Below are positions 46,217 to 55,364 of a DNA stretch of 64,000 bases, piece after piece. Positions within the stretch are counted from its first letter, which is position 1. The number at the start of each line of letters is the position of its first letter. A model generated the notes under the pieces. It did no database searches. It was not told where the DNA came from and worked only from the letters and a program-made list of their open reading frames with translations. The stretch comes from a virus. Location of the stretch: positions 62,001 through 126,000 of IMG/VR virus record IMGVR_UViG_3300022848_000777; one strand, given 5' to 3'. Both the position numbers and the translations under genes were made by a program.

Positions 46217-46800
46217 AGAGTGCATCGGAATTAGCAGATGGGGACATAGTTGTAGCATAAATCAACGATATCTATCAGAATACATACATATACCACTCAT
46301 AAAGAGATATTACGAAAACGAGTCATATATGTGTGTTTACGTTATTCATAATTTTAGGGGATTGTTATTATCAGACTAATAATATATCAGTACATTCATT
46401 GCGGATATGACAATCTCCATTAAAAAACAACAAAGGGTATGGTAAGGGTGGGAACACTAAACCATTCAGGAATAGGGTAGCATACTACACATTCTTTTCG
46501 ATTTGGCAAAAAAAATCCAATAGAAAAACTCTATTAGCTGATAGACACCCTCTATCACGTCAATTTACATAGATATTATCTATCACATAGACAGCCTCTA
46601 TGGATATTCCCGTGCCGCAAATCCTGTATTGATAGTATGTAACTGCTGATTATCAGTGAGTTAGACTACTTTGATGGCTTATAGGGATAGAATCAAAATC
46701 GCAATTAGGGCCATCCAGTGGGGTTTCGGTGCATAATTCACTATTTTGGGGTGATTCATATAGATAAATAGTATGAGAATCTGAGCCATCAAAAGAAAAT
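46217..46800. other. Gene-free stretch, left part
   Basis: No credible ORF on either strand. It holds short scattered repeats: an isolated AAATCCAATAG element (~46513), GATAG/CTATC inverted repeats (~46541-46585) and a 24-base segment beginning GACTACTTTGATGG (46664) repeated at 46997. It leads into the promoter array. Confidence 0.6.
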
Positions 46801-46810
46801 GGCTTAATAA

Positions 46811-47590
46811 TTTGGCTATTTCAATTATTATTCGTACCTTTGTAGGGAATTTGGTGTTAATTTTCGAAAATCGGTAGGAATCCAATAATGACTAAAGATT
46901 AATTTGGCCATTTCAACTATTATTCGTATCTTTAGAGGGGGGCTTGATGCTAAATTTATTATAAAACAACCAATACAGGCGATCTATTGGGGTGGAGACT
47001 ACTTTGATGGCTTATAGAGACGAGGAAATTGTTTAGAAATCCAAAATGGCTATATATCACCCTCTGACTATGCTGCGACATCAATAAAATCTATTAGAAA
47101 TCCAATAGAGTGGTGTGATTATCAGTATATTACAGTAATCAGAATGGCATAAGAATCCAATAGTATCTCAGTGCGCCGTAGGAATCCAATAATGACTAAT
47201 TATTGATTTGGATATCTCAATTATTTTTCGTAACTTAGGATGGGATGGTCATGCGACTGAATTATTAATATGGCATGGGAATCCAATAATGACTAAAGAT
47301 TAATTTGGCCATTTCAATTATTTTTCGTAACTTAGGATGGGATGGTCATGCGACTTAATTTGTGATCTGCCGTAGGAATCCAATAATGGCTAAAGATTGA
47401 TAGGAATCCAATAGTGGTTATCTATTAATAGGAATCCAATAATGGCTAAAAATTGATTTGGCCATCTCGATTATTTTTCGTAACTTTGGATGGGACGGTC
47501 ACCTCACGTGTCCAGTTGGGAATCCAATAATGGCTAAAAATTGATTTGGTTAATTCAATTATTTTTCGTAACTTTGGATGGGACGGTCAC
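46811..47590 (+). repeat. Tandem promoter/GGAATCCAATAAT repeat array
   Basis: Six units, each with TTTG, exactly 20 bp, and TAnnTTNG: -33/-7 pairs at 46811/46835, 46903/46927, 47207/47231, 47304/47328, 47457/47481 and 47545/47569. Five are preceded by RGGAATCCAATAATGRCTAA (46876, 47180, 47277, 47430, 47518); extra copies without a promoter lie at 47374 and 47402, and shorter ones at 47035, 47096 and 47151. The last four promoters are followed by GGATGGGAYGGTCA. No ORF of gene size follows any of them. Could be an array of small-RNA genes, a transcription-factor or polymerase sink, or an iteron-type replication origin. Confidence 0.75.
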
Positions 47591-47675
47591 TACCCGTATC
47601 CCGACCGATCGATACATAACAAATTATAATATTATATAACATGAATATATCGATATCATCTATTCGCATTATAAA

Positions 47676-47707
47676 TTAGGTAATTATTGATATTATCCGT
47701 ATATTGC
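47676..47707 (+). promoter_or_regulatory. Bacteroidota-type promoter
   Basis: TTAG 47676-47679, 20-bp spacer, TATATTGC 47700-47707. Long purine-rich leader (about 85 nt) to ATG 47793. Confidence 0.65.
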
Positions 47708-47792
47708 AATGTAAGATTGAGAAATCGTTAAGAGAGAAAGTTAAGAGAGTGTTATTAAGTTTATAAACCACACTAACTAAATTGATTAAACT

Positions 47793-51243: not shown

Positions 51244-51284
51244 TTATTATAATATTACAATTGGGTTGTGATAAATAACGTAGG

Positions 51285-51320
51285 TGCCACTCCCCCCAGT
51301 AAGTAAGGGGGGGGGCGGCA
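51285..51320 (+). other. GC-rich hairpin after the MoxR-like gene
   Basis: TGCC/GGCA plus a C6/G9 tract form a strong stem, a striking base composition for this genome. No T run follows directly, so it may be a transcript-stabilising or weak terminator structure. Confidence 0.55.
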
Positions 51321-51420
51321 TTAACGTGTAACCAAAGAAAAAAAGACGCGAACCAAATCGGGCATTATCGACCCCCGTTGTGAGGCTACTTTTTCTCCCT
51401 AGGTAAAACCCTTCTGTAAA

Positions 51421-51439
51421 GCTTGTGTATCACACAAGC
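51421..51439 (+). other. Perfect 8-bp hairpin
   Basis: GCTTGTGT and ACACAAGC with a 3-nt loop, just upstream of the first attC-like site. The 51244-51503 interval otherwise holds no gene. Confidence 0.5.
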
Positions 51440-51460
51440 AGTATTTAATTAACAAGCAGA

Positions 51461-51509
51461 AGCCTTAAAAATAGCCTAAACTAGCTTTTGTTTTTATATT
51501 TTGTTAGGC
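51461..51509 (+). other. attC-like site 0 (compact)
   Basis: Ends in GTTAGGC (51503-51509), an exact GTTRRRY box; cleavage would fall between 51503 and 51504. L boxes CTAAACTAG and TATATTTT resemble those of the site at 57408. Confidence 0.55.
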
Positions 51510-51519
51510 ACAGTTTATT

Positions 51520-51663
51520 ATGGACTACGAAGAAAGAGCAGAACACGAAATTGAACTGATAGAACAAGACGAAACATTAAGTGAAAAGAAAAAGTCTCAA
51601 GCAATAGAAGATGTTATACAAGAACTCCGAGAAGAACTCGAAGACCATAAAAACGGTAGGTAA
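51520..51663 (+). CDS. Cassette-borne small acidic helical protein
   Basis: 47 residues from ATG 51520, nearly all charged helix (EERAEHEIELIEQDE...). The cassette begins TTAGGCACA and its end box reads TGTGCCTAA, 9 of 9 complementary, with a perfect RYYYAAC box (GCCTAAC 51677-51683). Function unknown. Confidence 0.6.
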   Translation: MDYEERAEHEIELIEQDETLSEKKKSQAIEDVIQELREELEDHKNGR

Positions 51664-53294: not shown

Positions 53295-53567
53295 ATGGTA
53301 GCAATAGAGTATTTTGATAGATATAGTAGCACAGCAAATGAGCCCGATATAATGGGTAGATGGGCAAGAACGGCCATCTATAAAAACATCAGAATAGCTT
53401 GGATAAGTAGAATAGAAAATAAAGATGAAATTATTTTTAGTGTTTCTTGCCATTTCCCAACAATGCAGAACGATACAGCAAACGAACATAAACTATGTTT
53501 TAGTTTGGATGAAGCAAAAGAGTTTGTACAAGATCGCTGGGAATGGTTCTTAAATGAGGTTTCTTAA
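53295..53567 (+). CDS. Hypothetical protein
   Basis: 90 residues, mixed fold. Its end overlaps an R''-type box (CTTAAAC 53563-53569) followed by AAGGCTATG. Not recognised. Confidence 0.5.
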   Translation: MVAIEYFDRYSSTANEPDIMGRWARTAIYKNIRIAWISRIENKDEIIFSVSCHFPTMQNDTANEHKLCFSLDEAKEFVQDRWEWFLNEVS

Positions 53568-53607
53568 ACGTTAAGGCTATGTGTAGTGCCAAAATTTTAA
53601 AATAAAA

Positions 53608-53639
53608 TTAGGTAGTTCAACATATTATTCGTATATTTA
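53608..53639 (+). promoter_or_regulatory. Promoter of the structured RNA
   Basis: TTAG 53608-53611, 20-bp spacer, TATATTTA 53632-53639. Confidence 0.7.
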
Positions 53640-53644
53640 CAAGA

Positions 53645-54125
53645 TGTATAGAAGTCGGCAGCGAATCGACTAATACATTACAGACATTCTTGTACGTCCA
53701 ATAGCCTTTGTGCTGTATCGCTCGGAATGTTTAATTGAAAGCCGCTAGAGAGGGTTCTTAGAAAGCGGCACGGGTTTGCGAAAGGAACGCCCACTAAGAA
53801 GGTTTATTACACAACCTATAGAGTTCTGAGCATCGGATTGTAATTAAACGAAGCACCTAATAACGAAGGCTCAATGAAGGTTAAGCATATCGTTTAAAGG
53901 TATCGCCCTACGTAGTTTCGCAACGAACTTCTTAGGGATTGCTATACCTTTAACTCAGGTCTAAATCAGGTATAGCATAGTATTTAAAGTGTACACTAAC
54001 TAGTTTTTCTTTAGATTGGGTGGTAATTGTAAAAAATTACAACAATAAACTTGTGTAGTATAATTTAATTGATTACATTGGTCAAAGATAAGGGGGAAAC
54101 TTAACCCAATAGTGAATTAAATTAA
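53645..54125 (+). ncRNA. Candidate large structured RNA in the cassette array
   Basis: About 480 nt without a credible ORF, behind a good promoter. Helices seen: GCCGCT/AGCGGC (53741/53764), a loop-to-3' pseudoknot TTCTTAG/CTAAGAA (53755/53794), a long-range GTTTAATT/AATTAAAC (53729/53842), a 10-bp stem (53894-53903 with 53944-53953) extended by CCCTA/TAGGG, an alternative GCTATACC/GGTATAGC (53941/53969) that excludes that stem, TAATTTAATT/AATTAAATTA (54061/54115) and ATTGGG/CCCAAT (54015/54105). It ends where the attC at 54126 starts. No tmRNA, RNase P or group I hallmark was seen. Confidence 0.6.
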
Positions 54126-54193
54126 ATAAAACGGTTTGGCTATGATGTCGGTTTTTATTTTTCTTAAAAACTGCATTATAGGTGGTGTTATAC
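54126..54193 (+). other. attC-like site A
   Basis: R'' ATAAAAC, L'' GTTTGGCTATG, long imperfect hairpin, R' GTTATAC (54187-54193). Exchange point 54187/54188. Confidence 0.75.
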
Positions 54194-54242
54194 CCTGTTT
54201 TTGAGCGTTGGATAAAATAATTTACAGAAAAGTGTATTTTTA

Positions 54243-54274
54243 TTTGGTGGTTAATACAGAATGCTGTATATTTG
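54243..54274 (+). promoter_or_regulatory. Cassette-borne promoter
   Basis: TTTG 54243-54246, 20-bp spacer, TATATTTG 54267-54274, a perfect Bacteroidota consensus inside the cassette that starts at 54188. Confidence 0.8.
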
Positions 54275-54302
54275 TAGTATAATAATTAAAACAAAAGAAA
54301 TT

Positions 54303-54500
54303 ATGACAACCCAAGAAATGAACAACAAGGTAATAGTAAGAGCAAAAGAACTTTTAACAATACCACAAGTGCAAAAAGAATACCAATCAAAAGAAAATGA
54401 AGCAGAAGCAAAAGATTGGATTTTACACCAAGCACTAATAACTCTTATGTATTCTCACGAAGAAAGAATGGAGATGCTAAAGAAAAAACAAGCAGCATAA
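54303..54500 (+). CDS. Cassette-borne small protein (first of pair)
   Basis: 65 residues from ATG 54303, helical and charged. Shares one base with the next gene (TAATG). The two-gene cassette with its own promoter recalls toxin-antitoxin cassettes, but neither protein is recognised as such. Confidence 0.6.
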   Translation: MTTQEMNNKVIVRAKELLTIPQVQKEYQSKENEAEAKDWILHQALITLMYSHEERMEMLKKKQAA

Positions 54501-54658
54501 TGAGCAAAGACCTAATAAAATGGAGTGAACTGAGCCGCAAATTAAGCGGTTCAGACAACTCTATACGACATAATAAAATACCTAAAAAGTATGAACGCAA
54601 AGTAAATCGTTTACTGTGGATTCTCGATTTGTGGGAGCGTTGGGCAAATAGGGTATAA
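54500..54658 (+). CDS. Cassette-borne small basic protein (second of pair)
   Basis: 52 residues. IKWSELSRKLSGSDNSIRHN and KKYERKVNRLLWILDLWERW suggest a small helix-turn-helix-like DNA-binding fold. The stop TAA lies within the R'' box (GTATAAC 54653-54659) of the following attC, as is usual for cassettes. Confidence 0.6.
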   Translation: MSKDLIKWSELSRKLSGSDNSIRHNKIPKKYERKVNRLLWILDLWERWANRV

Positions 54659-54747
54659 CGTTTAGTATATGGTTTTGTAAGCCATAGCAGAAATTTACAA
54701 TTGAAAAAGAATATTAATTGGCTTATAAACTATATACAGTGTTATAG
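54653..54747 (+). other. attC-like site B
   Basis: R'' GTATAAC, R' GTTATAG (54741-54747). Inner arms GTAAGCC/GGCTTAT and TATATGG/CTATATA pair. Exchange point 54741/54742. Confidence 0.75.
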
Positions 54748-55002: not shown

Positions 55003-55278
55003 ATGAAGGAAAAAATTGATGAATTAATGGATAGGTTTGATGAAGGGAATATGTGTATAGATGACTTACACGGTGAGTTATTGGATTTATACAATGTTAC
55101 CCCTCGTTTTTTTGTGGCTTTGGTGTACCAAAATGTAGGGGCTACAATGTTAAGAACCTTAGTTACAAAATGTGACAACAAAGATGAGGCGTTAGGCAAA
55201 GCCATAAAATACTTTGCAGAAGAAACAAAAGGTTATGGCTTAGTAATGAAAACAGTTACTTCTCCAAATGGGGGGTAA
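55003..55278 (+). CDS. Hypothetical protein in cassette region
   Basis: 91 residues from ATG 55003; earlier in-frame starts lie in the attC-like site. Helical start, then FFVALVYQNVGATMLRTLVTK. Not recognised. Confidence 0.55.
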   Translation: MKEKIDELMDRFDEGNMCIDDLHGELLDLYNVTPRFFVALVYQNVGATMLRTLVTKCDNKDEALGKAIKYFAEETKGYGLVMKTVTSPNGG

Positions 55279-55364
55279 TGGTTTGGCTATGAATTGAAGC
55301 CAAGTAAAAATGTTCAATTCAATTACAAATCTTCATAGGCTTTTATTTATAGTCTGTGTTATAA
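55274..55364 (+). other. attC-like site D
   Basis: R'' GGTAATG (AATG instead of AAC), GTTTGGCTATG, arms TTGAAGCC/AGGCTTTT, R' GTTATAA (55358-55364). Exchange point 55358/55359. Confidence 0.7.

What the first reader, a model, noticed from the sequence alone, without database searches (positions are those of the whole stretch)
53645..54125. Candidate large structured RNA ending at an attC site
A 480-nt ORF-free stretch behind a consensus promoter has long complementary segments including a pseudoknot (53755-53761 with 53794-53800) and two mutually exclusive stems sharing 53941-53948. It abuts the attC at 54126, so it may be a non-coding cassette. Large ornate RNAs (such as the ROOL and GOLLD classes) are known from phages; I could not match it to one.
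Basis: partly seen in the sequence, partly recalled or inferred. Interest (0 to 1): 0.78.

Follow-up and report, generated by a model that had tools for sequence, protein, structure and literature searches.

The report
Orphan promoter-driven phage noncoding RNA candidate
A flavobacterial phage carries a roughly 350-480 nt stretch that codes for no protein, sits behind one of the phage's own promoters and can fold in two competing ways, so it is probably a noncoding RNA gene, but it has no detectable relatives and its structure and function remain unproven.

Summary
The observation mostly holds. Window 53568-54302 has no plausible ORF. A promoter at 53608-53640 matches a motif found 27 times on the coding strand of this 174,750-bp phage record (2 on the other strand, 1.6 in shuffles); the motif also precedes its tRNA blocks and its GOLLD RNA. 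The listed helices are real: six perfect >=8-bp complementary pairs in 53641-54016 against 1.1 expected (4 of 2000 shuffles reach six), four of them forming a chain of mutually exclusive helices. GC is raised (42% against 33%).

It is not ROOL, GOLLD, tmRNA, tRNA or any other Rfam family, although the genome carries a true GOLLD, a tmRNA and 28 tRNAs 15-24 kb downstream. The only homologue found is in a near-identical record, so covariation could not be tested. Searches covered 51 phage records and samples of about 400 Bacteroidota genomes each, with BLAST and two single-sequence covariance models. Folding energy is unremarkable (z -1.8).

The region is an integron-like cassette array: the upstream neighbour gene is an attC-flanked cassette elsewhere, and 54126-54196 is a real inverted repeat. 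'Non-coding cassette' is possible but unproven. Best reading: an orphan, phage-transcribed structured RNA of unknown class (confidence 0.5).

The parts
53608..53640 (+). Phage-type promoter (TTAGG ... CGTATATTTAC), predicted start about 53645
   Evidence: 27 matches of the general pattern on +, 2 on -, 1.6 in shuffles; similar promoters before genes and tRNAs in related phages
53645..54125 (+). Candidate noncoding RNA; the helix-rich part ends near 53995-54016, true 3' end unknown
   Evidence: No ORF, GC 0.42 against 0.33, helix excess, no terminator found
53643..53679 (+). 5' hairpin at the predicted start site
   Evidence: Pair probability 0.83-0.92; z -2.98
53720..53831 (+). Predicted four-way junction holding three hairpins (53741-53769, 53772-53792, 53800-53817)
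   Evidence: modelled as R1
53755..53800 (+). Possible pseudoknot 53755-53761 with 53794-53800 (7 bp)
   Evidence: Perfect complement in the sequence, but 7-bp matches are expected by chance
53794..53935 (+). Competing 8-bp pairing 53794-53801 with 53928-53935
53729..53849 (+). H1: 53729-53736 with 53842-53849 (8 bp); excludes H2
53844..53897 (+). H2: 53844-53851 with 53890-53897 (8 bp); excludes H1 and overlaps H3
53894..53953 (+). H3: 53894-53903 with 53944-53953 (10 bp); excludes H4
   Evidence: best fold with H3 -88.6 kcal/mol
53940..53977 (+). H4: 53940-53949 with 53968-53977 (10 bp); excludes H3
   Evidence: best fold with H4 -91.0 kcal/mol
53295..53567 (+). Upstream neighbour ORF (90 aa); occurs elsewhere as an attC-flanked cassette gene
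53560..53641 (+). Degenerate attC-like left half, overlapped by the promoter
   Evidence: Weak inverted repeat, z -1.25
54126..54196 (+). attC-like inverted repeat
   Evidence: z -3.62, 0 of 300 shuffles fold as well; outer boxes pair at 5 of 7 positions
54243..54500 (+). Separate promoter (54243) and downstream ORF 54303-54500
   Evidence: in L368 a homologue occurs with its promoter but without the RNA

Best explanation
53645 to about 54000-54125 is a stand-alone noncoding RNA gene of the phage. Shown in sequence: a promoter of the phage's own type stands in front of it and it has no coding capacity. Inferred: the transcript exists and folds into a 5' hairpin, a four-way junction and a 3' part that can take two nearly equal folds (H3 or H4), and it acts in trans as a structured RNA during infection, for example by binding a host or phage protein or RNA. 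It lies in an integron-like cassette region, so it may have been gained with, or be, an ORF-less cassette.
For: Promoter family (27 on +, 2 on -, 1.6 in shuffles), also before tRNA blocks and GOLLD in this phage. No coding capacity. GC 0.42, top half percent of windows. Six perfect >=8-bp complementary pairs against 1.1 expected, 4 of 2000 shuffles. Two near-equal folds, -91.0 and -88.6 kcal/mol. The downstream ORF has its own promoter, so a 650-nt leader is not needed.
Against: No divergent homologue and so no covariation. Overall folding energy near chance (z -1.80) and the reverse strand folds better. The helix excess was examined after the fact, and 2 of 464 genome tiles reach a similar excess. 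No terminator. No transcript data.
Confidence: 0.5

Rival explanations
1. A promoter followed by non-functional cassette debris: transcription may start here, but the sequence has no selected structure and is a spacer left by cassette gain and loss.
For: Cassette-type surroundings with a degenerate attC on the left; no homologues; folding energy near chance.
Against: Raised GC and balanced G/C in an AT-rich phage; excess of long perfect helices with mutually exclusive chains; a well-formed phage promoter kept in front of it.
Confidence: 0.25
2. A long structured leader or attenuator that controls the following cassette genes (54303 onwards) by switching between H3 and H4.
For: Two exclusive stems of similar stability; genes follow on the same strand.
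Against: No terminator hairpin with a U-run at either stem; the next ORF lies about 320 nt beyond H4 and has its own promoter; in L368 a homologue of that ORF occurs with its promoter but without this RNA.
Confidence: 0.13
3. A DNA-level element (recombination or replication site) rather than an RNA.
For: Many inverted repeats, next to attC-like sites; the reverse strand folds as well or better.
Against: Phage promoter directly in front; no tyrosine recombinase in the record; no GC-skew switch here.
Confidence: 0.07
4. A diverged member of a known RNA class such as ROOL, GOLLD, HEARO, tmRNA or RNase P RNA.
For: Size and branching resemble such RNAs; the genome carries GOLLD and tmRNA.
Against: No Rfam match at gathering, and only chance-level ones up to E 10 with permissive filters, while this phage's GOLLD and tmRNA are found easily.
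Confidence: 0.05

Closest known systems
GOLLD (RF02032) and ROOL large ornate phage RNAs
   Same: Large, ORF-free, phage-encoded and promoter-driven; a true GOLLD lies in the same genome behind the same promoter type
   Different: No match to either family model; not near the tRNA island, whereas both are described as often near tRNA islands (PMC12286853); no covariation evidence
ORF-less integron gene cassettes (PMC6557892) and attC sites in phages (PMC9892861)
   Same: Lies between attC-like repeats, next to an ORF that is a cassette gene elsewhere
   Different: Left site degenerate; no integrase in the record; unit not seen elsewhere; promoter is of the phage's own type
Riboswitches and attenuators
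   Same: Two overlapping helices of similar stability
   Different: No terminator stem with U-run, no match to a known ligand-binding class, and not directly ahead of a start codon

Membership tests
GOLLD RNA (RF02032) | Match to the family covariance model above gathering | tested here: not met
   No hit in the window; the only hit in the record is at G000 139663-140146
ROOL, HEARO, OLE, RNase P RNA, group I intron (Rfam 15) | Match to the family covariance model above gathering | tested here: not met
tmRNA / tRNA | ARAGORN or Rfam match | tested here: not met
Integron gene cassette | attC inverted repeat at the cassette's downstream end | tested here: inconclusive
   54126-54196 is a strong inverted repeat, but its outer boxes pair at only 5 of 7 positions and depart from the canonical core
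Integron gene cassette | Clean left boundary at the end of the preceding attC | tested here: not met
   The preceding site is degenerate and overlapped by the promoter
Integron gene cassette | Neighbouring genes are cassettes in other genomes | tested here: met
   ORF 53295-53567 is followed by attC hairpins in L361 and L365
Integron | Integron integrase (tyrosine recombinase) | tested here: not met
   No PF00589 match in the record
Riboswitch/attenuator | Known class, or terminator/antiterminator pair before a gene | tested here: not met
Structured noncoding RNA family | Compensatory changes in predicted helices across homologues | tested here: inconclusive
   Only one other, identical, copy found
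Stand-alone transcribed RNA gene | Discrete transcript | not testable with these tools
   No RNA-seq available; only the promoter motif

The most novel reading that the evidence does not exclude
A new class of bistable phage noncoding RNA that moves as an ORF-less integron cassette and is expressed alongside GOLLD, tmRNA and a large tRNA set by a flavobacterial phage.
Probability: 0.1. Interest if true: 0.75.

Novelty: new member of a known kind. Interest (0 to 1): 0.4.

Why it matters
If transcribed, it would be a phage RNA gene outside all described families, in a genome that also carries GOLLD. It would be another sign that large phages use RNA-only functions widely, and a case for testing whether integron-type cassettes can carry structured RNAs. 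At present it is a good experimental candidate, not a discovery.

Tried and rejected
Exact patterns of 15-18 nt from several parts of the RNA gave only the near-identical record plus chance matches: flank comparison and the best cases read by eye (L200, L255, L247) showed no supporting similarity. L355, found with model R1 (E 0.008 in one of 398 genomes), aligns mainly at a terminator-like hairpin between ORFs. The noncoding stretch of L071 behind a similar promoter reads as unusual tRNA genes on inspection, and L014 2675 precedes a tRNA gene; neither resembles the candidate. Decayed-gene reading: the six stop-masked frames have no PHROG match. Paralogue within the phage: none. blastn in phages and plasmids: none for the RNA; the wider array matched only at the 51445 element and at the promoter region near 54186. 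The 7-bp pseudoknot on its own was rejected as evidence. A first attempt to constrain H3 used the wrong register and was redone.

Full report
Source. The window is bases 62001-126000 of a 174,750-bp IMG/VR virus record. The host is probably a flavobacterium: one element of the cassette region (51445-51522) is 90% identical to Cellulophaga phage phi46:3 and also matches Tenacibaculum phage JQ, and the region near 54186 resembles Flavobacterium phages.

The observation. The stretch 53568-54302 is free of plausible genes. A promoter motif lies at 53608-53640. A general form of it (TTWGG-N16-21-YGTANNTT) occurs 27 times on the coding strand of the record, twice on the other strand and 1.6 times in dinucleotide shuffles, almost always with the same total length. 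It stands before protein genes and also before tRNA blocks, a ~150-nt RNA-like unit with a terminator-like end at 135.5 kb, and the GOLLD RNA. Relatives have similar promoters before genes and tRNAs. Transcription from about 53645 is therefore the best-supported part of the finding. It is still a prediction.

Structure. In 53641-54016 there are six perfect complementary pairs of at least 8 bp; shuffles average 1.1, and 4 of 2000 reach six. Four of them form a chain in which each excludes the next: 53729-53736/53842-53849, 53844-53851/53890-53897, 53894-53903/53944-53953, 53940-53949/53968-53977. The best folds containing the third or the fourth differ by only 2.4 kcal/mol (-88.6 and -91.0). 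Robustly predicted local helices are a 5' hairpin at the start site and three hairpins inside a four-way junction. Against this, total folding energy is near chance (z -1.80 for the whole; the best sliding window here is -2.6), the reverse strand scores better than the forward one, and the helix excess was chosen after the fact: 2 of 464 genome tiles have an excess of at least 5. The phage's own tmRNA and GOLLD also have modest scores (-1.4 and -2.0), so energy neither supports nor refutes. GC content is 0.42 against a window mean of 0.33, in the top half percent of 300-nt windows.

Identity. Rfam 15 gives no match, and ARAGORN none. The same genome does hold a genuine GOLLD (184.7 bits, G000 139663-140146, with a tRNA-Leu inside), a tmRNA and 28 tRNA-type calls in all by ARAGORN and Rfam, 15-24 kb further on. 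The tools thus recognise such RNAs in this phage, and the candidate is not one of them. Published GOLLD and ROOL RNAs are described as often encoded near tRNA islands (PMC12286853); the candidate is not.

Homologues. The only other copy is in IMGVR_UViG_3300023240_001391, 100% identical over the region. Nothing was found in phages or plasmids by blastn, in 50 records of related phages by blastn, in those and the own record with two single-sequence covariance models, in 34 and 400 bacterial genomes by blastn (the three matches are short and one, L342, was read and lies in coding sequence), or in 398 and 396 Bacteroidota genomes with the models. Exact patterns gave only chance contexts. Single-sequence models are weak and the genome sets are samples, so absence is not proof. 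With no divergent relative, covariation cannot be assessed. This is the main limit of the case.

Cassette context. Genes between about 51.5 and 56 kb are separated by repeats with a common left part (AACGTTTGGCTATG-like). Three full inverted repeats lie at 54126-54196, 54653-54747 and 55272-55361, the first folding better than all 300 shuffles. The repeat word AACGNTTGGCTATG is absent from the related phage loci fetched. The ORF just upstream of the candidate (53295-53567) occurs in other contigs as an attC-flanked cassette gene (L361, L365). The ORF downstream (54303) has its own promoter and occurs with it in L368, without the RNA. The record has no tyrosine recombinase. attC sites in phages are known (PMC9892861), and ORF-less cassettes with promoter activity are known (PMC6557892). 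The candidate may therefore be an ORF-less cassette, but its left boundary site is degenerate, its promoter is of the phage's own type, and no second copy of the unit was found.

Mechanism. My preferred reading is a stand-alone, trans-acting structured RNA transcribed from about 53645 (0.5). Shown: promoter motif, no coding capacity, excess complementarity. Inferred: transcript, fold, function. A leader or attenuator reading is less likely because no terminator or adjacent gene fits. Cassette debris behind a promoter remains a serious rival (0.25).

Verdict. It is an orphan RNA candidate that needs transcript data; interest 0.4.

Noticed in passing
G000 139663-140146 (outside the window; L348 13763-14246): A genuine GOLLD RNA (184.7 bits) with tRNA-Leu(CAG) inside it, in a block with 27 other ARAGORN calls including a tmRNA; among 43 records searched only this phage and its near-identical twin have GOLLD.
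   Followed up: partly
window 46217-47792: A 1.6-kb ORF-free stretch with six tandem-like copies of the phage promoter, most followed by similar leader sequence (GGATGGGAYGGTCA...) and 'GGAATCCAATAATGGCTAA' repeats; possibly an array of short RNAs or promoter decoys.
   Followed up: partly
G000 135820-135934 (L348 9920-10034); L014 3759-3857, L068 4736-4829, L029 2196-2292, L061 4652-4748: A conserved ~95-nt RNA-like element in the tRNA arrays (AGTGAARCT ... GTAACCYCGAAAGACCCGAAG, then a T-run) with five pairs showing changes on both sides among five sequences; no Rfam hit at gathering where scanned.
   Followed up: partly
G000 135452-135630: Promoter, about 150 nt of noncoding sequence closed by ACACATCA/TGATGTGT and a run of seven T: a likely small RNA.
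   Followed up: no
window 51244-51519: GC-rich noncoding stretch with CCCCCC/GGGGGG and CTTGTGT/ACACAAG hairpins between the ATPase gene and the cassette array; its end (51445-51522) is 90% identical to Cellulophaga phage phi46:3.
   Followed up: partly
L008 6507-6832, L043 7003-7328, L052 888-1214: Related phages encode short tmRNAs with tag peptide GNTS(Y/L)AMAA, a few kb upstream of the ATPase gene.
   Followed up: no
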